This document shows positions 37,268 through 59,006 of a stretch of 64,000 bases of DNA, in pieces (position 1 is the first letter of the stretch; every line of letters starts with the position of its first letter). The translations under genes and the position numbers were made by a program. The notes under the pieces are model-generated. The model saw only the letters and a program-made list of their open reading frames with translations. It ran no database searches and had not been told where the DNA came from. This stretch comes from Burkholderia sp. USMB20 (lineage in GTDB: Bacteria; Pseudomonadota; Gammaproteobacteria; Burkholderiales; Burkholderiaceae). The stretch lies in NCBI RefSeq assembly GCF_000949135.2, contig NZ_JTAN02000013.1, positions 1 to 64,000 on the forward strand, read 5' to 3'.

Positions 37268-39793
37268 TCAACCGGAGAAGAGTGAGCCGCGGCCGCCATC
37301 GGTCGACACCGGCGTTGTCTGCAACGGATCGCGAACCGTTCCGCTCGCACCGCCCGGTTTGTCCCAGCTTCCGCATTTTTCGAGGATCTGCCCGGTCGTC
37401 ACGTTCTCGATCAGCCCGCCCTTGATGCGGATATACGAGCCACCCGCGCCGATCCACACTTCCTCTGCGGCCGTCAGAATCAGACGTCCGTCCGCACTTT
37501 CGATCTTTACGTCTTGCAGGCCGACCAGTGAAACGGCGCCGCTCTGCGCCTGAATGTCCACCGGCCCCTTTGCGGCGAAAATCTTGATGCCGAGGTTCTG
37601 CGCGAACAGGCTGATCTTGTCGAGCACACTGGCCAGCAACGCTTTGCCGGCCGCCAGGTTGATGTTCCTGCCTGCCACGACGTTCGCGTGCTGGTTTGCC
37701 GTGACATGCACCGATTGCTGCGTCGACGCGGCGATCCCTTCAGGACTCGATAGCAGCATCACCGGCTTCGCAAAACCATTCGCGTTGCCGGTGCCGCCGC
37801 CGGCTGTGCGGCCACCGCCGGTCGCGCCAGCGATCGTGCGCTGCGTCGCGTCGGTGAACGACTTCAGCGCGGCCTGGCCGTCGTGCAGGCTTTCGGCGCG
37901 GTTCGTTTCGCTGGCCCTCGACGCGGCTTCGAACACGGCCTCCGCGCCGGCGAGCGGCTCGGTTGCGGCCGTTACGTTCAGCGGCTGCGCGGTGGCCGGC
38001 TGCGTCGACACATACAGGCCTTGCTCGGCGCGCACCGCGCCGTACGCGCCGGATTTCAGGTCGAACCCGTTGCCAAGGAACGTGCCGCGCGTGTTGTCGC
38101 TCTGCTCGATCAGATAGCCCAAATGCAGATGAGAGCTGTAGCTCGACGAGTAAAGGTGGACGCGGTTCTGACCGCTCGAGTCATCCATGACGAACTGGTT
38201 GAAACCGTCGCCACCATATTCGCGGGAGCGGAAGCCGGACAGCAGGCCATGGGTATGCCATACCGGCATCGTTGCGCCACCATGCAATCGCGAGATGATG
38301 ACCGGCCGGTCGCAATCGCCGTTCACGAAGCCCAGGAGCACCTGATCATCTTTGCGCAACGGAAAATAACCGCCACGCCTTGCGCCTGCGTCCGGCATCG
38401 CCGCCCGGATCCACGACGTCGACTTCGTATTGCGATCGTTCCGGCTGTTCGATGTCCTGACCCGCACACGGTTGCCGTCGTCCGTGACGATTTCCTCGTT
38501 GCGGTCGGTTACGACGATCGCCGTCTGCAAGTGCATCTCCGGCTTCTGATGCTCGAACGGGCTGCGAAAGGGTGTCTTGCGGCGCTGCGCTTCGATCTCG
38601 ACGTGAAAGAATCCGACGCCGCCATCGCGGTGGCTCACGGTCGTACCGGCCCCGGTGGACTGGGCCTGTTCGATTTCGCTGCGCAGGCTGCGCGGGAATC
38701 GCGTGAGCGCATCCATTCCCGGCACGTTGTTCTGGATCAGCCAGTCGCTCGCGATGATCGACAACTCGCGCTCGTCCGCTGGCAGCGCATCGAAGAGAGG
38801 ATGCCCGGATACCCTGAACCAGTAGCCGGGCAGCGCGTAGCGCGGACTGCCGATCGCGAAATAGCGCTTCGCACGCGAAGCCCATTCTTCGGTTCGAATG
38901 CGGGCCTGTTGTTGTCCGACATCGGATTTGGCCCAGGTCTGCGAGCCCGTATACAGATAGTCTTCGCCCTGACCGGGCAAATCATCCAGATCCGCCGCCG
39001 GCGTGCTGACCTGTTTGTCGAGGTCCGGCCGCTTGTAGTCGGCCGTTCCGAGCGTGAGTGTCGCGCTCTGGACGTCCTGCTGTTCGCTCAACTGGGTGAG
39101 CCCGTCGAAATCCTCGTCGGTGCCCGCGTGGCTGAACTTCATCTCCGCATTCGGCAGCGAAGGCCCGAAATACAGGTCGTCCATCATGATGACCTCGTGC
39201 GACTTGCCGTCCTGCGCGAAATCGAAGCGCGGAAACACACCGACCTCCTCCAGGCTCCGATGCACGAAATTCCAGTCGGTTTCCCACTGCACGCGGTGCG
39301 AATACGAGCGCACCGCCGTGCGCAGTTCGTGACCATAGTTGCCGGAAGCTTGCGGATGCTTGTCGAATACGTCGGTGAGAATCTGCCAGCCGCTGGCTTC
39401 CTGCCAGTCGCGCCGATCGCTGCCGAGTTTCAAAAAGCTCAACCAGGAGGAGAACTGGAGCTGGAAATACGAGACGGTCCCGTCGTTTCCGAGACGACGG
39501 GCGCGTTGCACGTAGCCGTGGATCGGCAGATAGCTGCCGCCCGTCTGGCGGATCCACAGCGTGACAGGTTGCAGCATCAGGGCGTTGAGCTTGATTTTGT
39601 CGCCCATGACGGACGATGCGTCGACGGTCACCTCGAAATTGCGGCCGAGCCGTGCGTTGATCTTGACGTACAGCGGCACGAGCCAGTCGTCGCCGAGCGG
39701 CGTGTCAAGTTTGATGACGCGATCGAACTGCGCGTAGCCGCCGCGCAGCACCTTCAGCAAGACTTCCCGGCCCATTCGGTCACCCCGGTTCAT
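37268..39793 (-). CDS. vgrG: T6SS spike protein VgrG with DUF2345 domain
   Basis: An 841-aa protein. The gp27-like N-terminal half (FEVTVDASS, LGFVNGDCDRPVIISRLH marking the transition to the gp5-like OB fold) is followed by the beta-helical needle and a C-terminal DUF2345 region (AEEVWIGAGGSYIRIKGG). It forms the membrane-piercing trimer that carries the downstream effector. No tss core genes are in the window, so this is an orphan vgrG module using a secretion machine encoded elsewhere. Start uncertain: ATG at 39793 lacks a clear ribosome-binding site, whereas MGREVLLK at 39775 has GGGGTGA upstream. Confidence 0.9.
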   Translation of the reverse strand: MNRGDRMGREVLLKVLRGGYAQFDRVIKLDTPLGDDWLVPLYVKINARLGRNFEVTVDASSVMGDKIKLNALMLQPVTLWIRQTGGSYLPIHGYVQRARRLGNDGTVSYFQLQFSSWLSFLKLGSDRRDWQEASGWQILTDVFDKHPQASGNYGHELRTAVRSYSHRVQWETDWNFVHRSLEEVGVFPRFDFAQDGKSHEVIMMDDLYFGPSLPNAEMKFSHAGTDEDFDGLTQLSEQQDVQSATLTLGTADYKRPDLDKQVSTPAADLDDLPGQGEDYLYTGSQTWAKSDVGQQQARIRTEEWASRAKRYFAIGSPRYALPGYWFRVSGHPLFDALPADERELSIIASDWLIQNNVPGMDALTRFPRSLRSEIEQAQSTGAGTTVSHRDGGVGFFHVEIEAQRRKTPFRSPFEHQKPEMHLQTAIVVTDRNEEIVTDDGNRVRVRTSNSRNDRNTKSTSWIRAAMPDAGARRGGYFPLRKDDQVLLGFVNGDCDRPVIISRLHGGATMPVWHTHGLLSGFRSREYGGDGFNQFVMDDSSGQNRVHLYSSSYSSHLHLGYLIEQSDNTRGTFLGNGFDLKSGAYGAVRAEQGLYVSTQPATAQPLNVTAATEPLAGAEAVFEAASRASETNRAESLHDGQAALKSFTDATQRTIAGATGGGRTAGGGTGNANGFAKPVMLLSSPEGIAASTQQSVHVTANQHANVVAGRNINLAAGKALLASVLDKISLFAQNLGIKIFAAKGPVDIQAQSGAVSLVGLQDVKIESADGRLILTAAEEVWIGAGGSYIRIKGGLIENVTTGQILEKCGSWDKPGGASGTVRDPLQTTPVSTDGGRGSLFSG

Positions 39794-40717: not shown

Positions 40718-40808
40718 TGGCGGAGAGAGGGGGATTCGAACCCCCGATAGGCGATTAACCTATACACGCTTTCCAGGCGTGCGACTTAAACCACTCATCC
40801 ATCTCTCC
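40718..40808 (-). tRNA. tRNA-Ser (GGA)
   Basis: A 91-nt class II tRNA with acceptor GGAGAGA paired to TCTCTCC, anticodon GGA (TCC at 40772-40774 on the plus strand), a long variable arm, TTCGAATC T-loop and encoded CCA. The T6SS module lies on its 3' side. I found no obvious second copy of the 3' end at the far side of the module. Confidence 0.96.
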
Positions 40809-45911: not shown

Positions 45912-47099
45912 CTATGCCATCGACACGACGCTGTTCAGCAGCATCTTCACCAGCACGGCCTGCCGTGTCGCGCCCGTCTTCGCGAAGATTCCGCGCAGAT
46001 GCGCACGGGCGGTGTTCTTCGTGATGCCGGTCGCGGCGGCCGCTTCGTCGAGCGTCAGGCCGTCGACGAGCAGTAGCGCGATCTCGGTTTCCATCGGCGT
46101 GAGGCGAAACAGCCGGTGCAGCATGTCGCGCGAGGTCTGGGGCGACGACGCCGGATCGCGGACGAACACCGCGACGGCCGGCCGGTGCTGGCGGTCCTCC
46201 GCGCCGTGAAAGGGCGCGAGCGGGCGCAGCAGCACGTTCAACGGCATCGCGCCGCCGGGGCGCGACAGCGTGGTGGCCTCGATGCGGCCGAGCGCACCCG
46301 CGCGGAAATGCTCGAGCGCGGCCTGCAGCGCCTTCTGCAGCCGGCGCTCGTCGAGCGGGCACGACGCATGGAGCCGCTCCTGGCGCAGGCACAGGCCGTC
46401 CTGCTGCTCGAACAGCCGCTCGGCGATGCGGTTGTGCTTGATCACGCGACCGTCCTCGTCGAGGATCGCGGTGCCGACGTCGAGCCGGTCGACCGTGCCC
46501 GCGTACAGCGCGCGTTCGGCGTCGAGCACGTCGAGCGCCGCGTGCAGCTCGACCGCGCGCTGCAGGTGCGGCAGCAGCGTCGCGACCTGCGCGCGTTCGG
46601 CCGCGTCGAAGTCGCGCGCATGATGCGGGCGGCTCACGAAGAACGCGCACTCGACGCCGCGCTCGCCGCGCAGATTCGCACCGAGGATGAAGCGCAGGTC
46701 GAGCGGCTGCAGGTATTGCCGGTAGAAATCGTGCGCGCACCAGCGTGTCGCGCCGAACAGCGTGTCGGCCGTGAACACCTGGCCGGGCGGGTGGTCGAGA
46801 AACGGGCACAGCGCGTAGAACTCTTCGCTGTACGACGGTTCGCCGGGCAGCAGCGGGCCGTGGGTCGATGCGTTGATGATGAGCCCGCGCCGCGTGCCGC
46901 GCGGGCTGCGCAGCACGAGCGTCGTGAAGCTCGCGTCGAGCCGCACGCGCATCGCTTCGAGAAAGCCCGCCCAAGGCGTCGTCTCGGACGGGCCCTGATA
47001 GACGAGCCCGAGCCACGCGCTGAGTTCGCGGGCCGTCCATGCCGCGTCGTCGAAGCTGTCGTGTGCGGCCGTGTCGCCGGGCGCCAGCGCGATCCGCAT
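45912..47099 (-). CDS. LuxR-type (FixJ/NarL helix-turn-helix) regulator of the sulfation cluster
   Basis: A 395-aa regulator. The C-terminal HTH domain (about 330-390) reads RLTPMETEIALLLVDGLTLD and ATGITKNTARAHLRGIFAKT. The long N-terminal part has no receiver or acyl-homoserine-lactone domain; residues 200-290 (AGTVDRLDVGTAILDEDGRV) look PAS-like and may bind a ligand. An 18-bp dyad of the same kind as at cysD, the DUF1214 gene and the SRPBCC gene lies upstream of its own start, so I infer that it activates all four units, including itself. Confidence 0.85.
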   Translation of the reverse strand: MRIALAPGDTAAHDSFDDAAWTARELSAWLGLVYQGPSETTPWAGFLEAMRVRLDASFTTLVLRSPRGTRRGLIINASTHGPLLPGEPSYSEEFYALCPFLDHPPGQVFTADTLFGATRWCAHDFYRQYLQPLDLRFILGANLRGERGVECAFFVSRPHHARDFDAAERAQVATLLPHLQRAVELHAALDVLDAERALYAGTVDRLDVGTAILDEDGRVIKHNRIAERLFEQQDGLCLRQERLHASCPLDERRLQKALQAALEHFRAGALGRIEATTLSRPGGAMPLNVLLRPLAPFHGAEDRQHRPAVAVFVRDPASSPQTSRDMLHRLFRLTPMETEIALLLVDGLTLDEAAAATGITKNTARAHLRGIFAKTGATRQAVLVKMLLNSVVSMA

Positions 47100-47138
47100 G
47101 CTCGTGTTCTCCTGGGTCGGGGTGAATGCTCCCGAGCC

Positions 47139-47182
47139 AGCATACCGACCGGCCAGCCGCCCGCGTCATCCGAACGGAGTAG
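47139..47182 (-). promoter_or_regulatory. Predicted operator and promoter of the luxR-type gene
   Basis: On the minus strand CTACTCCGTTCGGATGAC (47165-47182) resembles the cluster dyad, with its centre 32 bp before TATGCT (47139-47144), a good -10 hexamer. The start codon is 40 bp further on. This is the weakest of the four sites in sequence but has the best -10. Confidence 0.5.
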
Positions 47183-47232
47183 ACGACGCGGGCCGTGCCG
47201 GAGCGACGCAGCGTGCGTCGCGCTGGCGCCGC

Positions 47233-49146
47233 TTACGCGGTGCGTTCGCGCAGCAGGTACGCGACGATCCGTTCCGCCGCGGCCTCCGGCGACTCGGCCA
47301 CCGTATCGATGCGCAGTTCCGGCTGCGCCGGCGGCTCGTACGGCGAGTCGATGCCCGTGAAGTGCTTCAGTTCGCCCTTGCGCGCCTTCTTGTACAGCCC
47401 CTTCGGATCGCGTTCCTCGGCGACCGCGAGCGGCGTGTCGACGAACACTTCGACGAACTCGTCGGGACGAACCAGCGCGCGCGCCATGTCGCGTTCCGCG
47501 CGGAACGGCGAGATGAACGACACGAGCGTGATGAGCCCGGCATCGAGCATCAGCCGCGCGACTTCGGCCACGCGCCGGATGTTCTCCACGCGATCGGCCT
47601 CGGTGAAGCCGAGATCGCGGTTCAGGCCGTGCCGCACGTTGTCGCCGTCGAGCAGGTACGTGTGCTTGCCGAGCGCATGCAGGCGCCGCTCGACGAGGTT
47701 CGCGATCGTCGACTTGCCCGCGCCCGACAGCCCGGTCAGCCATACGATGCGCGGCGTCTGCGCCTTCTGCACCGCGCGCGCGTCGCGGTCGACGTCGACG
47801 GCCTGCCAGTGCACGTTGTGCGCGCGGCGCAGCGCGAAGTGCAGCATCCCGGCGCCGACCGTGTCGTTGGTGAAGCGGTCGATCACGATGAAGCCGCCGG
47901 TGTGGCGATTCAGGTCGTACGGATCGAACGCGACGGGCCGGTCGAAGCTCAGGTTGCACACGCCGATCTCGTTCAGCGCGAGCGTGCGCGCGGCGAGATG
48001 CTCGCGCGTGTTCACGTCGATCTTGTACTTCGGCGTCGCGCAGGTCGCGCCGACCGTCTGCGTGCCGAGCTTCACGAGATACGGCCGGCCCGGCAGCAGC
48101 GGTTCGTCGTGCATCCACACGAGCGTCGCCTCGAACTGGTCGGCGACTTCCGGTGGCGCGTCGGCACGCGCGATCATGTCGCCGCGACTGATGTCGATCT
48201 CGTCGGCGAGCGTGAGCGTCACCGCTTCGCCGGCGCGCGCGACATCGGCTTCGCCGGCCGGCGTGATCACCGACGCAACGCGGCTCTCCTTGCCGGACGG
48301 CAGCACGCGCACGCGTTCGCCGACGCGCACTTCGCCCGACGCGATGCTGCCGGCATAACCGCGGAAGTTCAGGTGCGGACGGTTGACCCATTGCACGGGC
48401 AGCCGGAACGGTTCGTCGCGCGTCACGCGCTCGACGAGCGGCAGCGTGTCGAGATGCCGCATCAGCGGCGGGCCCGCGTACCACGGCATCCGAGCGCTCG
48501 ATGTGATCACGTTGTCGCCGCGCAGCGCGGACATCGGAATGCTGACGATTTCGTCGAGGCCGAGTTCGGCTGCGAACGCGCGGTAGTCGGCGTCGATACG
48601 CTCGAACACGGCGCGGTCGTAGTCGACCAGGTCCATCTTGTTGATCGCGAGCACGACGCGCTTGATGCCGATCAGCGCGACGAGATGGCTGTGGCGGCGC
48701 GTTTGCGTGAGCACGCCCTTGCGCGCGTCGATCAGTATCACCGCGAGATCGGCGGTCGACGCGCCGGTGATCATGTTGCGCGTGTACTGCTCGTGGCCTG
48801 GGGTGTCGGCGACGATGAACTTGCGTCGTGCGGTCGCGAAGAAGCGGTATGCGACGTCGATCGTGATGCCCTGTTCGCGCTCGGCCGACAGGCCGTCGAC
48901 GAGCAGCGCGAAATCGAGTTCGCCGCCTTGCGTGCCGACCTTCTTCGAATCGGCTTCGAGCTGGGTCAACTGGTCGTCGAACAGCATGTTCGATTCGTAG
49001 AGCAGGCGGCCGATCAGCGTGCTCTTGCCGTCGTCGACGCTGCCGCACGTGATGAAGCGCAGCAGGTCCTTCGTTTGCGCATCGTCGGCGTGCATGTCGG
49101 GCGTCGTGTGCGCAAGTGCCTCGGGGGCGGTGAGAACGTGTGCCAT
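47233..49146 (-). CDS. cysNC: Bifunctional sulfate adenylyltransferase large subunit / APS kinase (CysN-CysC fusion)
   Basis: A 637-aa NodQ-like fusion. Residues 25-450 are the CysN GTPase: [15 protein letters not shown] (G1), [12 protein letters not shown] (G3) and NKMD (G4). They energise APS synthesis with CysD. From about 455 the APS kinase domain carries [33 protein letters not shown] and the [10 protein letters not shown] loop, giving PAPS, the sulfate donor for sulfotransferases. Assimilation alone does not require a kinase in many Burkholderia, so a fusion next to a sulfotransferase points to sulfation. The ATG shares a base with the cysD stop (TGATG). Confidence 0.94.
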
Positions 49147-50042
49147 CAGAAATATCCCTCCTGTTTCTTCTTTTCCATCGAACCGGCCGAATCGCTGTCG
49201 ATCAGCCGTCCCTGGCGCTCGGACGTGCGCGTGTCGCGCATCTCCTGCAGGATGTCGTCGAGCGAGCTCGCGTCGCTGTCGATCGCGCCCGTCAGCGGAT
49301 AGCAGCCGAGCGTGCGAAAGCGCACCTTGCGCATCTGCGGCACTTCGCCGTCGCGCAGCGGCAGGCGTTCGTCGTCGACCATGATCAGCGCGCCGTCGCG
49401 CTCGACCACCGGCCGCTCCTTTGCGTAGTAGAGCGGAACGATCGGAATGTCGTGCAGCCGGATGTATTGCCAGATGTCGAGTTCGGTCCAGTTGGAAATC
49501 GGGAATACGCGCAGGCTTTCGCCGCGGCGCTTGCGCGCGTTGTACAGCGACCAGAGTTCGGGACGCTGGCGCTTCGGATCCCAGCGGTGCTGCTCCGAGC
49601 GCAGCGACACGATGCGCTCCTTCGCGCGCGATTTCTCCTCGTCGCGGCGCGCGCCGCCGAACGCGGCGTCGAAACCGTAGTGGTCGAGCGCCTGCTTGAG
49701 CCCCTGCGTCTTCCACACGTCGGTGTGCACGGCCGAGCCGTGCGTGAACGGATTGATGTCGTTCGCGACGCCGTCGGGGTTCACGTGCACGCGCAGGTCG
49801 AGGCCGAGGCGCGCGGCCGTCTCGTCGCGAAACGCGATCATCTCGCGAAACTTCCACGTCGTATCGACGTGCAGCAGCGGAAAGGGCGGCTTCGCCGGGT
49901 AGAAGGCCTTCATCGCGAGATGCAGCATGACCGAGCTGTCCTTGCCGATCGAATAGAGCATCACCGGGTTTTCGCTTTCCGCGACCACCTCGCGCATGAT
50001 GTGGATGCTTTCGGCCTCCAGTCGCTCCAAGTGGGTCAACAT
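49146..50042 (-). CDS. cysD: Sulfate adenylyltransferase small subunit CysD
   Basis: A 298-aa PAPS-reductase-fold ATP pyrophosphatase-type subunit that forms APS from ATP and sulfate. The PP-loop reads [12 protein letters not shown] (about residues 31-42); also [25 protein letters not shown] and the C-terminal [18 protein letters not shown] end seen in all CysD proteins. It is the first gene of cysD-cysNC and is divergent from the DUF1214-sulfotransferase operon, with a 213-bp control region between them. Confidence 0.95.
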
Positions 50043-50105
50043 CGTTCGTCTCCTTGTTGCATGCCGGCGCCGCGCGACATGTGCGGCGTTTCGTGCATGA
50101 CGCCA

Positions 50106-50226
50106 ACGGTATCGAGCGAGGGCGGTGCCGTTCTTCGTCCGGGTGGACTAACACGCGGCGCGGCGGGCAGCGGATCTTTCCTTAGTCCACCCGGACGAAG
50201 TGGCGCGCGAGGCGCTCGCTTAAGGT
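50106..50226. promoter_or_regulatory. Divergent control region with a perfect 19-bp inverted repeat
   Basis: CTTCGTCCGGGTGGACTAA at 50133-50151 and its exact reverse complement at 50182-50200 face each other across 30 bp. Each arm is itself a dyad (TTNGTCC-N4-GGACNAA), so each can bind a dimer. On the minus side TACCGT (50106-50111) lies 34 bp from the left dyad centre; on the plus side TAAGGT (50221-50226) lies 33 bp from the right one. This is the spacing expected for an activator overlapping the -35 position. Confidence 0.7.
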
Positions 50227-50255
50227 GAACGCTCGACCATCGGCGGAGACGACAC

Positions 50256-51365
50256 ATGACGGACGACACACGCGCCACGCAGTTGCTTTCGGGCCAGACC
50301 TGGGCCGATTTCTGCGACACCCTGAAACGCAGCGGCGAGCAGATCCTGCGCGCCGAGGCGCCGGACGATCCGCTCACGCGCGCGGAAGGATTCCGCTACC
50401 TGAGCCGGCTGATGCGCATCGCGCTCGAAATGCACGTCGAGTTCGCGGACGGCGCGTGGCCCGGCTTCTTCTCGCCGTCGCACGAGACCGCGAAGATCGG
50501 CGCCGACAATCCGGACAACCTGTACCAGTACGCGCGCCTCGACGGCCGCTGCGAATATCGCGTGACGGGGCGGCGCGGCACGGTCGCATACCTGAGCTTC
50601 GGCACGCAGAAGGGCGGTTACGAGACGGACGGCAAGATGCTTCAGACGGGTTTTCTCGACGCGAAGCAGCTCGAGCTCGCGCCGGACGGCAGCTTCGAGA
50701 TCGTGCTGAGCGAAACGCCGCGCGCGGGCAACTGGGTGCGCATGGAGCCCGGCACGAACGCGCTGCTCGTGCGCCAGACTTTCCTCGACCGGCGCGCGGA
50801 GACTCCCGCGCAATTGAAGATCGAACGCATCGGCGCGCACGACCGGCCCGCGCCGCTCGACCCGCTCGTGCTGCAGGGCGGCCTCACGCGCGCCGCGCAG
50901 TTCGTCGAGCAGACGGCGAAGCTGTTTGCCGACTGGGCCGCGAGCTACGGCTCGCACGTAAACGCGCTACCGCCTGCGGACCAGGCGCTGTGCCAGTCGG
51001 TCGGCGGCGATCCGAACATCTACTATTACCACTCGTGCTGGTCGCTCGCCGACGACGAGGCGCTCGTGATCGATGTCGACACGGTGCCCGACTGCGATTT
51101 CTGGAACGTGCAGCTCAACAACTACTGGATGGAGTCGCTCGACTACCGGCACTTCGACATCTGCGTGAACAAGCACAGCGCGCGGCTGAATGCGGATGGC
51201 GGCGTGACGGTGGTGGTCGCCGCGTCGCGGCCGGGCGGCGCGAACTGGCTCGATACGGCCGGGCATCGCACCGGCACGATCTGCTGGCGCTGGGTCGGCG
51301 CCGCGCAGCCGGTGCATCCGCGCACGCGCGTCGTCAAGCTCGCCGCGCTGAAGGAGGCCGCATGA
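50256..51365 (+). CDS. DUF1214 domain protein of the sulfation operon
   Basis: A 369-aa cytoplasmic protein, no signal peptide. The C-terminal DUF1214 domain includes IYYYHSCWSLADDEALVIDV, WNVQLNNYWMESLDYR and a closing NWLDTAGHRTGTICWRW. Function unknown. Relatives occur beside sulfotransferases, SDRs and NTF2-like proteins in mycobacteria and sphingomonads, to my knowledge without an assigned reaction. Start ATG 50256 with GGAG 8 nt upstream. It is the first gene of a four-gene unit; the stop overlaps the sulfotransferase start by 4 bp (ATGA). Confidence 0.85.
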   Translation: MTDDTRATQLLSGQTWADFCDTLKRSGEQILRAEAPDDPLTRAEGFRYLSRLMRIALEMHVEFADGAWPGFFSPSHETAKIGADNPDNLYQYARLDGRCEYRVTGRRGTVAYLSFGTQKGGYETDGKMLQTGFLDAKQLELAPDGSFEIVLSETPRAGNWVRMEPGTNALLVRQTFLDRRAETPAQLKIERIGAHDRPAPLDPLVLQGGLTRAAQFVEQTAKLFADWAASYGSHVNALPPADQALCQSVGGDPNIYYYHSCWSLADDEALVIDVDTVPDCDFWNVQLNNYWMESLDYRHFDICVNKHSARLNADGGVTVVVAASRPGGANWLDTAGHRTGTICWRWVGAAQPVHPRTRVVKLAALKEAA

Positions 51366-52555
51366 ACGCGCCGCTCGACCCGATCCGCGCGCAGCTCGAC
51401 GCCGACGCGCTGATCGACGAGGCCGTGTCGCGCACGGGCGGCCTCACCGCGTTCGGCGACGGCCCGTATCGCGAGGCGCTCGACGTGATGTGCGCATCGC
51501 TGAGCGACGAAGCGAAGCTGTCGGCGCGCGGTGTGGCGATGATGCGCGAGAAACTCATGGGCCAGCTCGTGAACCGGCTCGTTATCGAGGATTACTTCGG
51601 CCGTCATCCGGAGATCGCCGACATCGAGATCGATGATCCGCTCGTGATCGTCGGGCTGCCGCGCACCGGCACGACGCTGCTGCAGCGGCTGCTCGCGGTC
51701 GACCCGCGCTTTTATTCGGCCGCGTGGTGGGAAACGCGCTATCCGGCGCCGCTCGCCGGCGAGACGCTCGGCGCGCCGAGCGTGCGCATCGCGCGCGCGC
51801 AGGCCGAGGTCGCGACGATGATCGACTGCATTCCGCAGATCCTCGCGATCCATCCGCTCGACGCGATGCTCGCCGACGAGGAGTTCATGCTGATGGAGCA
51901 TTCGTTCGTGTGCGCGATGGATTCGTACGCGAACGTGCCGGGCTATACGGCGTGGCTCGCGAAGCAGGACCTGACGCCGGTCTACACGTACCTGAAGCGG
52001 ATGCTGCAGTTCCTGCAGTGGCAGAAGGCGCAACGCGGCGTTGCGCCGGCCGCGCGCTGGCTGCTGAAGACGCCGCAGCATCTGCATGCGCTCGACGTGC
52101 TGTGCCGCGTGTTTCCGCGGGCACAGGTCGTGCTCACGCATCGCGACCCGGCGCAGACGATTCCGTCGATGGCGAGCATGGCGCACACGCTGTGGCAGAT
52201 GTATGCGGACGACCCGGATCCGCGCACGGTCGGCGCGCAGTGGAACGCGGGGATGGCGCGCGCGATCGGCGCGGCGATGGCGGCGCGCGACGCGCTGCCG
52301 GCCGAGCGCTTTCTCGACGTGCGTTTCGAGGACACGGTGTCGGATCCGCTCGGCGTGGCCGAAGCCGTGTACCGCTTCGCGGGCATGTCGCTCGATGCGC
52401 CGCAGCGCGCGGCGATGACGGCCTGGATGGCGCGCAACGGGCGCGACAAGCGCGCCGCGCACGATTACTCGATCGCGCGCTTCGGCTTCACCGATGCGCA
52501 ACTGGCGCACGACTTCGCCGCGTATCGCGCGCGGCACCTGCGGGCGGCCGGCTGA
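51362..52555 (+). CDS. PAPS-dependent sulfotransferase family protein
   Basis: A 397-aa enzyme of the Sulfotransferase_3 type. The 5'-phosphosulfate loop is seen as VIVGLPRTGTTLLQRLLAVD (about residues 95-114). The 3'-phosphate-binding Arg/Ser region appears as RAQVVLTHRDPAQTIPSMAS (about 256-275). A His in the acceptor pocket is the usual catalytic base, but I cannot place it safely. It moves sulfate from PAPS to a hydroxyl of an unknown, probably lipophilic, acceptor. The PAPS supply is encoded by cysD-cysNC just opposite. Translationally coupled to the DUF1214 gene. Confidence 0.88.
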   Translation: MNAPLDPIRAQLDADALIDEAVSRTGGLTAFGDGPYREALDVMCASLSDEAKLSARGVAMMREKLMGQLVNRLVIEDYFGRHPEIADIEIDDPLVIVGLPRTGTTLLQRLLAVDPRFYSAAWWETRYPAPLAGETLGAPSVRIARAQAEVATMIDCIPQILAIHPLDAMLADEEFMLMEHSFVCAMDSYANVPGYTAWLAKQDLTPVYTYLKRMLQFLQWQKAQRGVAPAARWLLKTPQHLHALDVLCRVFPRAQVVLTHRDPAQTIPSMASMAHTLWQMYADDPDPRTVGAQWNAGMARAIGAAMAARDALPAERFLDVRFEDTVSDPLGVAEAVYRFAGMSLDAPQRAAMTAWMARNGRDKRAAHDYSIARFGFTDAQLAHDFAAYRARHLRAAG

Positions 52556-52595
52556 CGGCGCGCCCGCGAGACGAACCATAACCAGGAGACAACCC

Positions 52596-53387
52596 ATGTT
52601 GCTGAAGGACAAGATCGTCGTGATTTCAGGGATCGGGCCGGGGCTCGGTGTGAAGCTCGCCGTCGAGGCGGCACGCGAGGGTGCGCGCGGCGTGGTCGTC
52701 GCGGCACGCACGATGGACAAGCTCGACGACGCGGAAGCACGGATCGGCGCACTCGGCGTCGCATGCGACGTGCTGAAGGTACGCACCGACATCGCCGAGC
52801 GCGCGCAGTGCCGGCAGCTCGCGACGCAGGCGGTCGAGCGCTTCGGCCGGATCGACGCGCTCGTGAACAGCGCGTTCGCGCACGGCACGTTCCCGGAGCC
52901 GGTCGAGGAAGCCGATCTCGACGGCTGGCGCGCGGTGTTCGACACCAACGTGTTCGGCACGATGACGCTCACGCAGGAAATCGTGCCGCACATGAAGCGG
53001 CAGAAGCGCGGCGCGATCGTGATGATCAACTCGCAGGCGACCCGCAAGCCGTTTGCAGGGGAAGCGGGCTACGCTGTATCGAAGGGCGCGCTCGCGGTTG
53101 CGGCAAAATACCTGGCGCGCGAGCTCGGCGTGCACGGGATCCGCGCGAACAGCATCCACATGGGCTGGATGTGGGGCGTGCCGACGCAGACGTATTTCCG
53201 GCAGGCGGCCGCCGAATACGGCACGACGGAGGAAGCGATCATCGCGCCGATCGCGTCGAACATCGCGCTCGCGAAGCTGCCGACCGATGACGACTGCGCG
53301 CGCGCGGCGCTGTTCCTCGCGTCGGATTACGCGAACGCGGTGACCGGCGCGACGCTCGACGCGAACGGCGGCGATTTCATGCCCTGA
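52596..53387 (+). CDS. Short-chain dehydrogenase/reductase of the sulfation operon
   Basis: A 263-aa SDR. The cofactor motif is altered to SGIGPGLG (residues 10-17, with SG for the usual TG). The catalytic residues are seen in MINSQATRKPF (Ser) and GYAVSKGAL (Tyr-x-x-x-Lys). C-terminal DANGGDFMP closes the domain. It probably oxidises or reduces the acceptor of sulfation or its precursor (inference). An AGGAGA site precedes the ATG at 52596, 40 bp after the sulfotransferase stop. Confidence 0.88.
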   Translation: MLLKDKIVVISGIGPGLGVKLAVEAAREGARGVVVAARTMDKLDDAEARIGALGVACDVLKVRTDIAERAQCRQLATQAVERFGRIDALVNSAFAHGTFPEPVEEADLDGWRAVFDTNVFGTMTLTQEIVPHMKRQKRGAIVMINSQATRKPFAGEAGYAVSKGALAVAAKYLARELGVHGIRANSIHMGWMWGVPTQTYFRQAAAEYGTTEEAIIAPIASNIALAKLPTDDDCARAALFLASDYANAVTGATLDANGGDFMP

Positions 53388-53404
53388 GGACGGAGCAACG
53401 GATC

Positions 53405-54391
53405 ATGCAGGAACGACAACAGGAACAGGGGCGCCACTTCTTCGCGTTCAACGGCGATGCGGACGGCCTGTGCGCGCTGCAGCAGCTGCGGCTCGCGGAG
53501 GGCGAACGCGGCACGCTCGTGACCGGCGTGAAGCGCGACATCAGGCTGCTCGAGCGCATCGACGCGCGGGCCGGCGACCGCGTGACCGTGCTCGACGTGT
53601 CGCACGACCAGAACCGCGACGCATGCGCGCGGCTGCTGCGCGATGGCGCCGCGGTTCGCTACTTCGACCATCACTTCGCGGGCGAGCTGCCCGGCGATCC
53701 GCGTTTCGACGCGTATATCGACACGGCCGCCGACGTCTGCACGAGCGCGCTCGTGAACCGCCGTCTCGGCGGCCGGCATGTGCGCTGGGCGATCGTCGCG
53801 GCGTTCGGCGACGAACTGCCGGCGCTCGGCGACGCGCTCGCGCGCGAATACGGGATCGACGCAGCCGAACGCGGCACGCTGGCCGAACTCGGCCTCTACC
53901 TGAACTACAACGCCTACGGCGAATGCGTCGGCGACCTGCATTTCGATCCGGCCGTGCTGGCCGACGCGATGCTGCCATGCGTCGATCCGCTCGACTTCGT
54001 GCGCGACACGCCGGTGTTCGCCGCGTTGCGCGACGGCTATCGCGACGACATGGCGCTCGCGGGCGCACTCGCGCCGTTGCGCGACGTGCCGGGCGCGACG
54101 CTGATCAGGATGCCGGATCATCCGTGGGCGCGGCGCGCGACGGGGATGCTCGCGAACGAGCGGATGCGCAATGCGCCGCATGCGGCGCTCGCGGTGCTGT
54201 CGCCACGCGCGCAGGGCGGGTTCGTGGTCAGCGTGCGCGTGCCGGACGGCCGGGCGCTCGGCGCGGACGAATTCTGCCGCGGCTTCCCGACCGGCGGCGG
54301 GCGCAAGCGCGCGGGCGGCATCAACCATCTGCCGGAAACCGAATTCGACGCGTTCGCCGCGCGCTTCGAAGCGGCGTTCCGTCTCGACTGA
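53405..54391 (+). CDS. DHH-family phosphoesterase
   Basis: A 328-aa protein with the DHH/DHHA1 plan. Metal-binding motifs are FNGDADGLCALQQL (residues 14-27), VLDVSHDQNRD and RYFDHHFAG; the C-terminal DHHA1 glycine-rich motif is FPTGGGRKRAGGI. Relatives cleave cyclic dinucleotides, nano-RNA or 3'-phosphoadenosine 5'-phosphate (pAp). pAp is the by-product of PAPS-dependent sulfation, so a role in clearing pAp is an attractive inference from this context. It lies 17 bp after the SDR gene. Confidence 0.85.
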   Translation: MQERQQEQGRHFFAFNGDADGLCALQQLRLAEGERGTLVTGVKRDIRLLERIDARAGDRVTVLDVSHDQNRDACARLLRDGAAVRYFDHHFAGELPGDPRFDAYIDTAADVCTSALVNRRLGGRHVRWAIVAAFGDELPALGDALAREYGIDAAERGTLAELGLYLNYNAYGECVGDLHFDPAVLADAMLPCVDPLDFVRDTPVFAALRDGYRDDMALAGALAPLRDVPGATLIRMPDHPWARRATGMLANERMRNAPHAALAVLSPRAQGGFVVSVRVPDGRALGADEFCRGFPTGGGRKRAGGINHLPETEFDAFAARFEAAFRLD

Positions 54392-54460
54392 CCCGAGGGC
54401 CTGCGACACGCGCGCCGTGCAACGATGCCACGGCGCGCGCGTCGTGCGACGTGTCGGTGT

Positions 54461-54913
54461 TCAGCCGGTCGCGTTCGCAAGCACGGCCGGCACGTTGTGG
54501 CCGTAGCAGCGCTCCTCGACGCGCTCGGCGATGCGCCAGCCCTGCGCGGTGCGCACGAACCGGTCGACGTACCACAGCCCGAGAAACATCACCTGCGTGC
54601 CGCCGTCCGGCAGCGCGACTTCCATCGGATTGAAACAGATCGTGCGGCCGCGCGCGGTGTCGCCGTCGAGCGTGATCGACAGGTTGCCGACCAGGTGCTG
54701 GTACTGCGGGAACTGCGGCAGTACGGTGCGCAGCCACGCCTTGACGTCCGGATACGTGCCGGCGATGCCGCCCATCGCGCGATAGTCGATCGTCGCGTCG
54801 TGCGTGAACACGGCATCGAGCGCGTCGAAGTCGTGTGCATCGATCGCGCTCGAGTACGCGACGATCAGCTCGCGGAGGTCGTGATGATCGGAGAGGGTCT
54901 GCAGGTCGGGCAT
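54461..54913 (-). CDS. NTF2/SnoaL-like protein of the sulfation cluster
   Basis: A 150-aa small alpha+beta barrel protein of the SnoaL_4 type (LRELIVAYSSAIDAHDFDAL, then VFTHDATIDYRAMGG and YVDRFVRTAQGWRIAER). The family contains isomerases, dehydratases and binding proteins for polyketides and steroids; the His and Asp in the pocket allow catalysis, but the reaction is unknown. It lies 13 bp after the SRPBCC gene, same operon. Start MPDLQTLSDHHD at 54913. Confidence 0.85.
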   Translation of the reverse strand: MPDLQTLSDHHDLRELIVAYSSAIDAHDFDALDAVFTHDATIDYRAMGGIAGTYPDVKAWLRTVLPQFPQYQHLVGNLSITLDGDTARGRTICFNPMEVALPDGGTQVMFLGLWYVDRFVRTAQGWRIAERVEERCYGHNVPAVLANATG

Positions 54914-54926
54914 CGGTTGCGCTCCG

Positions 54927-55406
54927 TCACGCGCTTTTGCGCCGGCGGGCCGCATGCAGCGCTTCCGCCCGCAGCTTCACGTCGCGCGCGCACTGGTCGA
55001 ACCCCTGTTTCACCCAGCCGCCGTGCTCGCGCATGATCGTTTCCGCGTTGAGGCCGAGGAACTGGTCCGTCGTGAAGTAGCGGCAGCGCTCGGCGCCGTC
55101 GGCTTCGACGTACTGGTCGCGGCGCGCGGCGTCCTTGTTGTCGTCGGTCGGGCGCTGCTCCCACGACAGCAGGCGCTCGGGCTCGTATGCGACGAGGATT
55201 TCGTTGACGGGAATCACCGTCTCCGTGCCGGGAATGCGCACCTGCATGTGCACGAAGTCGCCGATCCGGCCGGTCGTCTCGAGGCCGACGCAGAACGTGT
55301 TCCATTCGCCGTAGCGCGGGAAGTCGGTCAGCACTTCCCAGACGACGGCAGCGGGGGCGTCGATCGCGACGGTGATCGAGGTGACGAGATTGGCTGGTTT
55401 GGTCAT
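54927..55406 (-). CDS. SRPBCC (polyketide-cyclase-like) protein of the sulfation cluster
   Basis: A 159-aa START-fold protein. It begins with the family pattern VTSITVAIDAPAAVVWEVLT and LTDFPRYGEWNTF, followed by a ligand-cavity barrel, and ends in a basic tail (ARRRKSA). It should bind a hydrophobic ligand. It is the first gene of the two-gene SRPBCC-NTF2 unit. A copy of the cluster operator lies about 210 bp upstream with a fitting -10, which implies a 5' UTR of nearly 180 nt. Confidence 0.85.
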   Translation of the reverse strand: MTKPANLVTSITVAIDAPAAVVWEVLTDFPRYGEWNTFCVGLETTGRIGDFVHMQVRIPGTETVIPVNEILVAYEPERLLSWEQRPTDDNKDAARRDQYVEADGAERCRYFTTDQFLGLNAETIMREHGGWVKQGFDQCARDVKLRAEALHAARRRKSA

Positions 55407-58641: not shown

Positions 58642-58943
58642 GCGTGTCTCCGGATGGATGCGTGCGGCGCGGCGGCCGCGTTCGATCCGATTAGACGATC
58701 CGGCCGCCGGCCGCTCAAGCAATCATTCGGTCGCGTTCGCATGCGTGCGGGGAATGCGATGCGGTTCGGACACGATGTCGGCGACGCGGGCTGTACACGC
58801 CGGATGCGTGAAGCCGCTGCGCCGCATGCAGCCGGCGTGACAGGCGGCCGATGCAGCGGGGACGGGGCGCCGGTGCATTGCCCGTGGCGGCGTTCATGTA
58901 CGTGCGCAACACCGCGCCGGCGCCGGCTCGATGCAGAATTTCG

Positions 58944-59006
58944 CTCGCGGCTCGCGGCTCGCGGCTCGCGGCTCGCGGCTCGCGGCTCGCGGCTCGCGGC
59001 TCGCGA
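58944..59006. repeat. 7-bp tandem repeat (VNTR), about nine copies
   Basis: CTCGCGG is repeated eight times without error and once as CTCGCGA. The array touches the LysR stop codon and lies about 300 bp before the MFS start codon. Confidence 0.95.

What the first reader, a model, noticed from the sequence alone, without database searches (positions are those of the whole stretch)
45912..55406. A self-contained sulfation gene cluster: PAPS synthesis, sulfotransferase and modifying enzymes under one LuxR-type regulator
Seen: cysD and a CysN-CysC fusion stand opposite a DUF1214-sulfotransferase-SDR-DHH operon, with an SRPBCC-NTF2 unit and a LuxR-type gene next to them. Known: CysD/CysN-CysC make PAPS, and PAPS feeds sulfotransferases; DHH phosphoesterases include enzymes that clear pAp, the by-product. 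Inferred: the cluster makes and sulfates an unknown, probably hydrophobic compound, with SRPBCC and NTF2-like proteins binding or reshaping it. I know of no described product for this gene set.
Basis: partly seen in the sequence, partly recalled or inferred. Interest (0 to 1): 0.82.

Follow-up and report, generated by a model that had tools for sequence, protein, structure and literature searches.

The report
Sulfation module tied to steroid breakdown
A set of bacterial genes that activates sulfate and attaches it to some molecule turns out to travel with the genes for breaking down steroids, which suggests that these soil bacteria put sulfate on a steroid or on a steroid breakdown product, a step we did not find described.

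Summary
All nine genes named in the finding are there, intact, at 45912-55406, in a Burkholderia (cepacia-complex-like) chromosome. The set is a real module: in 65 genomes of the genus the sulfotransferase, the CysN-CysC fusion and the cluster's cysD occur in the same 34, and all 65 have another cysD and cysN. Two oriented operators (TTAGTCC-N4-GGACGAAG) face cysD and the DUF1214 operon at the place of an activator and are conserved from Burkholderia to Cupriavidus.

The new result is the context. A high-scoring KshA (3-ketosteroid 9-alpha-hydroxylase; best score 242 bits or more, all other genomes 84 or less) is in 33 of 34 cluster-bearing and 3 of 31 cluster-free genomes of the genus. It is also in 23 of 23 named genomes that carry the sulfotransferase and in 0 of 54 Burkholderiales without it. 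In four Cupriavidus genomes the sulfation genes stand beside steroid ring-degradation genes. Two paralogs of the LuxR gene sit in that island, like TeiR/TesR. Best reading: a steroid-induced PAPS/sulfotransferase branch that sulfonates a steroid or a steroid-degradation intermediate. The product is not shown. DHH stays in 20 of 31 cluster-free genomes, so a dedicated pAp role is unsupported.

The parts
45912..47099 (-). LuxR-type regulator, 395 aa, PAS-like part; family with paralogs in steroid islands
   Evidence: GerE E 1.6e-4, PAS_4 E 7e-4, both under Pfam's cut-offs; full length in 32 of 34 cluster-bearing genomes (one more 84%), 0 of 20 cluster-free ones; paralogs 47/44/39% in G001, the 47% and 39% ones near KstD-like and KshA genes
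47233..49146 (-). CysN-CysC fusion: sulfate adenylyltransferase GTPase subunit plus APS kinase (makes PAPS)
   Evidence: NF004035 1064.8 bits; both P-loops intact; 34 of 65 genus genomes, same set as the sulfotransferase
49146..50042 (-). CysD, sulfate adenylyltransferase small subunit (cluster copy)
   Evidence: NF009214 575.7 bits; cluster copy 94-98% identical in the same 34 genomes; all 65 also have a 46-49% copy elsewhere
50133..50151 (-). operator facing cysD, reads TTAGTCC-ACCC-GGACGAAG on the minus strand
   Evidence: at least two exact core sites between cysD and DUF1214 in 36 of 41 named loci
50108..50113 (-). -10-like hexamer GATACC of the cysD promoter, 23 nt after the operator core (by eye, inferred)
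50182..50200 (+). operator facing the DUF1214 operon, TTAGTCC-ACCC-GGACGAAG
50220..50225 (+). -10-like hexamer TTAAGG of the DUF1214 promoter, same spacing (by eye, inferred)
50256..51365 (+). DUF1214 protein; overlaps the sulfotransferase by 4 bases
   Evidence: PF06742 39.1 bits; solved as 6ans, E 5e-245, named only 'Uncharacterized protein'
51362..52555 (+). PAPS-dependent sulfotransferase (Sulfotransfer_3)
   Evidence: PF13469 145.6 bits; nearest solved 2zq5 and 2z6v; GLPRTGTT at residue 98 and VVLTHRD at 256
52596..53387 (+). SDR oxidoreductase
   Evidence: NF005909 364.2 bits; SGIGPGLG and YAVSK motifs
53405..54391 (+). DHH-like phosphoesterase, in the operon but often kept after cluster loss
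   Evidence: motifs by eye; DHHA1 E 1.3e-4 in a Pandoraea homolog; ortholog in 20 of 31 cluster-free genus genomes
54461..54913 (-). SnoaL_4 / NTF2-like protein
   Evidence: PF13577 E 7e-31; full length in 27 of 34 cluster-bearing genomes and in 0 of 20 cluster-free ones examined, which hold 5 remnants
54927..55406 (-). SRPBCC (polyketide cyclase/lipid transport-like) protein
   Evidence: PF10604 E 7e-12; 33 of 34 cluster-bearing, 0 of 20 cluster-free examined; no operator upstream in this window

Best explanation
This is a steroid-linked sulfonation module. A LuxR-type regulator of the kind that sits in steroid-degradation islands (TeiR/TesR-like) binds TTAGTCC-N4-GGACGAAG operators centred near -42 and switches on, in both directions, (1) cysD and cysNC, which turn sulfate and ATP into PAPS apart from cysteine synthesis, and (2) DUF1214-sulfotransferase-SDR-DHH. 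The sulfotransferase moves the sulfo group from PAPS to a hydroxyl of a steroid or of a steroid-degradation intermediate. DUF1214, SDR, SRPBCC and SnoaL proteins bind or prepare that compound. Likely uses: keep a hydrophobic or phenolic intermediate soluble, trapped or harmless while the rings are degraded. Shown by sequence: gene content, motifs, co-inheritance, operator conservation, co-occurrence and adjacency with KshA-type steroid genes. Inferred: that the LuxR protein binds these sites and activates, that the inducer is a steroid, the substrate, and the physiological purpose.
For: Same 34 of 65 genomes for sulfotransferase, cysNC and cluster cysD. Presence changes at least 15 times by parsimony on a tree of flanking genes, 9 forced by starred branches, and SRPBCC is lost with the rest although DHH between them stays. 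High-scoring KshA in 33 of 34 cluster-bearing and 3 of 31 cluster-free genus genomes (Fisher 6e-14). 9 of 11 independent contrasts go the same way and 0 the other (p 0.004). KshA at 197 bits or more in 23 of 23 named genomes searched and none above 24.5 in 54 sulfotransferase-free Burkholderiales. In four Cupriavidus genomes the module is followed by luxR paralog, Bac_luciferase, KstD-like ... HsaC-like ... KshA; in Ralstonia soli, Ralstonia sp. A12 and C. necator A5-1 an HsaD-like gene lies within 3.5 kb. LuxR paralogs lie by KshA and KstD-like genes. Operators. TeiR is a LuxR-type factor required for testosterone degradation (PMC6678751, passages). In B. pyrrocinia P10 a cysCDN gene (log2FC 1.32) and 4 of 7 steroid-degradation genes rise together in root exudate (PMC10061817, passages).
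Against: No product, substrate or binding assay. The KshA threshold was set after seeing the scores: at Pfam's own cut-off (23.3 bits) KshA_C is in 33 of 34 cluster-bearing but also in 18 of 31 cluster-free genomes (15 of them at 84 bits or less), and the contrasts are then on average 3.5 same, 0 opposite of 11 (p 0.125). High-scoring KshA occurs without the cluster in G003, G028 and G065. Presence of the cluster is hardly clustered on the tree used (133 of 500 shuffles as low), which fits many losses but also a poor tree; that tree is of genes flanking the cluster. Most of the 33 more distant sulfotransferase loci (L151-L184 without L159) show no convincing steroid gene in their pieces. The stricter operator was not seen in the pieces of the G001 steroid island scanned (the looser core was looked for), and the window's SRPBCC unit lacks it. 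The window's own genome is not held, so KshA could not be looked for there. That the P10 gene ABD05_RS00860 is this cluster's cysNC was not verified.
Confidence: 0.66

Rival explanations
1. The module is induced with steroid degradation but sulfonates an endogenous lipid or envelope component (for example to help uptake of steroids), not a steroid.
For: SRPBCC and SnoaL proteins are generic hydrophobic-ligand folds; nothing in the data fixes the acceptor; an acyltransferase gene lies by two Paraburkholderia loci; co-occurrence would look the same.
Against: Among the 20 neighbour ORFs scanned no lipid-synthesis or export gene is shared by most loci. LuxR paralogs and OYE, SDR and luciferase-type monooxygenase neighbours point to steroid chemistry.
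Confidence: 0.16
2. The module detoxifies other plant or soil cyclic compounds (terpenoids, phenols); the tie to KshA reflects a shared lifestyle or island history rather than a shared substrate.
For: Adjacency in Cupriavidus could be an island inheritance; the P10 response was to root exudate (PMC10061817); three genomes have KshA without the module.
Against: In G001 the two sets lie on different replicons (C1 and C2), and over the genus they are gained or lost together in 9 of 11 independent contrasts with none opposite.
Confidence: 0.14
3. cysD-cysNC serve ordinary cysteine synthesis and the neighbours are unrelated.
For: None found.
Against: All 65 genus genomes have another cysD (46-49%) and cysN (51-54%) elsewhere; the cluster pair is absent from 31 of them. 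In G001, G002 and G005 the only APS kinase is the cluster's (other cluster-bearing genomes there have one or two more).
Confidence: 0.01
4. The operators belong to another regulator, or the LuxR protein represses.
For: Binding is not shown; luxR has no operator of its own in the window and sits downstream of cysNC; Comamonas also has a LuxR-type repressor of a steroid gene (PMC6678751 passage).
Against: The operator lies where a class II activator would bind (by eye), stands before several units in several genera, and a core site lies close to the luxR paralog in 7 of 10 Cupriavidus loci that hold it.
Confidence: 0.2

Closest known systems
Bacteroides BT_0411-BT_0416 cholesterol-sulfate cluster (PMC9417993, passages read)
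   Same: Putative PAPS-making genes next to a sulfotransferase; acceptor a sterol; Bt_0412 and Bt_0416 both up with cholesterol.
   Different: No DUF1214, SDR, SRPBCC, SnoaL or LuxR gene is named in the passages read; a gut bacterium that sulfates cholesterol; here the module goes with steroid ring degradation. Sequence likeness to BT_0416 was not tested.
TeiR/TesR, LuxR-type regulators of steroid degradation (PMC6678751, PMC8399759, PMC12239570, passages)
   Same: LuxR-type; gene lies by steroid genes; paralogs of the window protein sit next to KshA and KstD-like genes.
   Different: The window protein was not aligned to TeiR, whose sequence was not at hand; here the presumed targets include sulfate activation and a sulfotransferase.
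[quoted passage not shown]
   Same: KshA and HsaC-, HsaD-like genes occur in genomes studied here; that paper predicts steroid degradation in these genera and lists Cupriavidus necator ATCC 17699 as 'G, R' on testosterone.
   Different: Its main text holds no mention of sulfotransferase, sulfate, LuxR or TeiR.
Mycobacterial sulfotransferases (PDB 2zq5, 2z6v) and Rv3529c-Rv3531c in a cholesterol gene table (PMC6429209, passages)
   Same: 2zq5 and 2z6v are the nearest solved relatives of the sulfotransferase; Rv3529c, Rv3530c (possible oxidoreductase) and Rv3531c stand in that table.
   Different: That 2zq5 and 2z6v are mycobacterial STF proteins, that 2zq5 is Rv3529c (STF1), and that Rv3531c may be a DUF1214 protein are recalled, not tested; PAPS genes there were not looked for.

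Membership tests
Self-contained PAPS-sulfotransferase cluster | complete sulfate activation (ATP sulfurylase and APS kinase) beside a sulfotransferase | tested here: met
Self-contained PAPS-sulfotransferase cluster | sulfate activation separate from another, probably assimilatory, copy | tested here: met
   second cysD and cysN in all 65 genomes
Self-contained PAPS-sulfotransferase cluster | sulfonation of a defined acceptor | not testable with these tools
   needs enzyme assay
Steroid-degradation regulon member | genes lie in or go with the 9,10-seco steroid gene set | tested here: met
   (not testable in the window's own genome)
Steroid-degradation regulon member | induction by steroid | not testable with these tools
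   only a published co-rise in root exudate (PMC10061817), gene identity not verified
TeiR/TesR-type LuxR regulator | LuxR-type HTH and a PAS-like sensor part | tested here: inconclusive
   GerE E 1.6e-4 and PAS_4 E 7e-4, both under Pfam's cut-offs; that TeiR has such a sensor part is recalled
TeiR/TesR-type LuxR regulator | sequence relationship to TeiR itself | not tested
   TeiR sequence not at hand
TeiR/TesR-type LuxR regulator | paralogs located among steroid genes | tested here: met
DHH/DHHA1 pAp phosphatase (NrnA-like) | DHH and DHHA1 domains | tested here: inconclusive
   no Pfam hit in the window protein, DHHA1 E 1.3e-4 in one of three homologs, GGGR in place of the GGGH recalled for the family
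DHH/DHHA1 pAp phosphatase (NrnA-like) | present only where the sulfation genes are | tested here: not met
   ortholog in 20 of 31 cluster-free genus genomes
BT_0416-type cholesterol sulfotransferase | sequence homology to BT_0416 | not tested
   no sequence of BT_0416 was fetched

The most novel reading that the evidence does not exclude
Aerobic steroid degradation in Burkholderiales has an unrecognised sulfonation branch: a steroid-sensing LuxR protein builds a dedicated PAPS supply and sulfonates a steroid or a ring-opened (for example phenolic 9,10-seco) intermediate, with DUF1214 as a new partner family of the sulfotransferase. This branch has been lost repeatedly together with the KshA pathway.
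Probability: 0.53. Interest if true: 0.85.

Novelty: new variant of a known kind. Interest (0 to 1): 0.73.

Why it matters
Bacterial steroid degradation is described as oxidation, ring opening and beta-oxidation (recalled). A sulfotransferase set, mostly with its own sulfate activation, that goes with high-scoring KshA in 55 of 56 distinct genomes that carry it (33 of 34 in the genus and 23 of 23 named, one genome in both), against 3 of 85 without it (3 of 31 and 0 of 54), would add a conjugation step. It would matter for the fate of hormones in soil and water. It gives the uncharacterised DUF1214 family a testable context and offers a LuxR-operator pair as a possible steroid sensor. No paper holding both DUF1214 and sulfotransferase was found. 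Searches joining sulfotransferase with steroid-degradation terms listed none that by title and start of abstract describes this set (12 of 21 listed; 12 of 13 listed); the same holds for (20 of 21; 15 of 18).

Tried and rejected
Cysteine-synthesis explanation: rejected by second copies. DHH as dedicated pAp phosphatase: weakened. Search for a solved relative of DHH by sequence and by profile: nothing meaningful. Structure prediction: switched off, so no fold comparison was made. Remote operator gene: a second SnoaL_4 gene (Pfam run on one copy) on another contig or replicon starts about 60 bp behind an operator in 10 genomes (spacing computed for two). It is intact in 12 of 34 cluster-bearing and 0 of 31 cluster-free genomes (Fisher 1.4e-4), but independent contrasts are too few (mean 2.3 same, 0 opposite of 9; p 0.06-1), so it is offered only as a likely regulon member. 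Four further single operator-like sites in cluster-bearing genomes and six in cluster-free ones look like chance or other regulators; one, in G050, precedes a VOC-like ORF without a Pfam match and an SDR. The control, the pattern read backwards, hits about 1 to 11 times per genome; it has another make-up and was not used as a rate. Neighbours first taken as clues to the product (OYE, DUF1329, luciferase-like monooxygenase, DHBP synthase, esterase) became clear only with the steroid island. Literature searches.
Full report
What is there. The nine genes of the finding are present, intact and in the stated order. Two divergent units leave a 213-bp gap: cysD-cysNC, with luxR 133 bp further on, to the left; DUF1214-sulfotransferase-SDR-DHH to the right. 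Behind DHH, on the other strand, lies SRPBCC-SnoaL. Burkholderia sRNAs in the window and named Burkholderia relatives at 83-93% identity over the sulfotransferase place it in Burkholderia, near the cepacia complex; the species is not known and its assembly is not held.

It is a unit. In 65 held genomes of the genus the sulfotransferase is in 34. The CysN-CysC fusion (89-97% identical) and the cluster cysD (94-98%) are in the same 34. All 65 have an unfused cysN (51-54%) and a cysD (46-49%) elsewhere. 54 of the 65 have the orthologous DHH (34 cluster-bearing, 20 cluster-free); I fetched that locus from all 54. Full-length genes (85% or more of the query) in cluster-bearing ones: luxR 32, cysNC 34, cysD 34, DUF1214 34, sulfotransferase 33 (one broken), SDR 34, DHH 32 (one cut at a contig end, one broken), SRPBCC 33 and SnoaL 27 of 34. 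In cluster-free ones 0 of 20 for luxR, cysNC, cysD, DUF1214, sulfotransferase, SnoaL and SRPBCC, and one full-length but diverged SDR (76%, G003). Partial matches (SDR in 8 genomes, SnoaL in 5, DUF1214 in 1, SRPBCC in 1) look like remnants, so at least these are losses; a partial cysNC match in G011 is its separate APS kinase. Because DHH lies between the two lost parts and stays, one deletion cannot explain the common loss. On a tree of flanking genes (54 rows with the window, G070 left out) presence needs 15 changes, 9 forced by starred branches; shuffled labels need 16.5 on average and 133 of 500 shuffles are as low, so presence is scattered over the tree. The other 11 of 65 genomes lack the sulfotransferase, cluster cysD, cysNC and the DHH ortholog; the other genes were not looked for there.

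Outside the genus. A named scan (234 relatives, best 80 kept, 79 loci) and gene order show the same set, with shuffled SRPBCC and SnoaL, in Pandoraea, Paraburkholderia, Cupriavidus, Ralstonia and Collimonas. Three Paraburkholderia pieces (L128, L134, L159) have no cysD-cysNC next to the rest; Aromatoleum lacks luxR and DHH in its piece; a Nevskia MAG has DUF1214-sulfotransferase-SDR alone. A DUF1214-sulfotransferase pair without the full set also occurs in records labelled Spirochaetes, Deltaproteobacteria and Chitinophaga (33-38% for the sulfotransferase, 48-53% for DUF1214). In Collimonas DHH lies on the other arm.

Control. GTCC-N4-GGAC occurs twice in the window, both in the 213-bp gap; 1.31 are expected in the whole 64 kb. 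Read towards each gene the sites are TTAGTCC-ACCC-GGACGAAG. In 41 named loci with the two units divergent, 36 have at least two exact core sites between cysD and DUF1214, four have one and Pandoraea none; in L129, L130, L133 and L136 that space also holds SRPBCC and, in L129 and L136, more. In the promoter classes lined up, the operator is followed after roughly 23-26 nt by a -10-like hexamer (by eye), which puts its centre near -42, the place of class II activators (recalled). Over the genus the stricter pattern TAGTCC-N4-GGACGA hits the gap twice in 32 of 34 and once in 2 of 34 cluster-bearing genomes; in 31 cluster-free genomes there are six scattered hits. Ten of 14 further hits in cluster-bearing genomes lie before one orthologous SnoaL_4 gene elsewhere. 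In Paraburkholderia a core site also stands before a 46-50% relative of SRPBCC, and in C. necator A5-1 a variant stands before SRPBCC. In the window none does.

Steroid link. The LuxR protein has relatives of 47, 44 and 39% on another replicon of G001. The 39% one lies between two genes whose products match solved KshA at E 6e-117 and 4e-112 and KshA_C at 249 and 245 bits. The 47% one lies 5 kb from a KstD-like gene (587 bits to 3-oxosteroid 1-dehydrogenase, under its cut-off of 788). The 44% one lies elsewhere on that replicon. In the same region as the first two are HsaC-like (314 bits, under the cut-off of 450; solved 2zi8 at E 6e-74), HsaD-like (200, under 400), and three generic meta-cleavage enzymes over their cut-offs (2-oxopent-4-enoate hydratase, acetaldehyde dehydrogenase, 4-hydroxy-2-oxovalerate aldolase; I call them TesE/F/G-like from recall). 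Names such as KshB-like and HsaB-like are weaker: their best NCBIfam matches are other families and under cut-off.

Counting. KshA_C best scores per genus genome fall in two groups: 242 bits or more in 36 of 65 and 84 or less in the rest. The high group holds 33 of 34 cluster-bearing genomes (the exception, G070, is 82% complete) and 3 of 31 cluster-free ones. The split was chosen after seeing the scores. At Pfam's cut-off of 23.3 bits the counts are 33 of 34 and 18 of 31 (Fisher 1.4e-4). Of 11 independent contrasts on starred branches of a tree of 52 genomes (G040 and G070 left out), 9 go the same way, 0 the other and 2 do not differ for high-scoring KshA (p 0.004); at the cut-off 3.5, 0 and 7.5 (p 0.125). 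I then asked for 24 named loci. 23 genomes could be searched (L129 was not held; L125 is the same genome as G032 by coordinates) and all 23 have KshA at 197 bits or more. Of the 286 genomes without a sulfotransferase match, 54 were searched: 3 pass the cut-off, none above 24.5 bits, or 25.5 with neighbours. In 10 of 23 KshA is on the same contig as the cluster, judged by equal contig length: nine within about 55 kb, Aromatoleum at about 140 kb. In four Cupriavidus genomes read through the module is followed by the luxR paralog, a luciferase-like monooxygenase, a KstD-like gene about 8 kb from DHH, HsaB-, KshB- and HsaC-like genes, and KshA about 39-46 kb from the sulfotransferase. In Ralstonia soli, Ralstonia sp. 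A12 and C. necator A5-1 an HsaD-like gene lies on the other side, and in the Nevskia MAG TesE/F/G-like genes lie about 4 kb away. Of the 33 more distant loci (L151-L184 without L159), 27 show none of the reference steroid-island genes at E 1e-15 and six show only 26-55% relatives of acyl-CoA synthetase, acyl-CoA dehydrogenase, hydratase, luciferase-like monooxygenase or KstD.

How it most likely works. Steroid present, LuxR active, both promoters on, PAPS made, acceptor sulfonated. The acceptor is not fixed. [quoted passage not shown] Burkholderia, Cupriavidus and Ralstonia were predicted steroid degraders lacking most cholate side-chain genes, and C. necator ATCC 17699 is listed 'G, R' on testosterone and '-' on cholesterol and cholate; I take G as growth (PMC4810484, passages). 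So a C19 steroid or its seco products are the first candidates. In B. pyrrocinia a gene labelled cysCDN and 4 of 7 steroid-degradation genes rise in peanut root exudate (PMC10061817, passages); I did not verify that this is the same cysNC.

What it is not. Not cysteine synthesis. Not an established pAp-phosphatase partner. Not a member of the Bacteroides cholesterol-sulfate cluster by any test done here, though it works like one in outline (PMC9417993, passages).

Limits. No structure prediction. The tree rests on genes next to the cluster. The 54 control genomes were taken by handle order; many are small. In one search at most six first-look candidates per genome were scored. Comamonas, a known steroid degrader, was not tested for the module by name.

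Noticed in passing
L185-L194 (unnamed Burkholderia genomes), SnoaL_4 gene behind an operator: A lone SnoaL_4 gene on another contig or replicon carries the same operator in 10 genomes and is intact only in cluster-bearing ones (12 of 34 against 0 of 31).
   Followed up: partly
window 53405-54391: A DHH-like family with no Pfam, NCBIfam or PDB match for the window protein, kept in 20 of 31 cluster-free genomes and present in 72 of 369 genomes drawn from the class (matches outside the genus at 37-53% identity); its own job is unknown.
   Followed up: partly
G001 C2, about 1278-1365 kb (L269, L270, L265, L271, L272, L263): A steroid ring-degradation-like island with two KshA genes and two LuxR paralogs of the window regulator.
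   Followed up: partly
window 58943-59005: Nine perfect copies of a 7-bp unit (GCTCGCG) directly behind the stop of a LysR-type gene; meaning unknown.
   Followed up: no
window 37268-39793: A type VI secretion VgrG-like gene (Phage_GPD, DUF2345) about 0.9 kb from a tRNA-Ser (40718-40808).
   Followed up: no
L160 (record labelled Spirochaetes MAG): DUF1214-sulfotransferase pair with cysC-, cysD- and cysN-like genes about 5-7 kb away, a possible independent version of the module.
   Followed up: no
L195 (G050): An operator-like site before a VOC-like ORF (no Pfam match) and an SDR gene, perhaps a target of a LuxR paralog.
   Followed up: no
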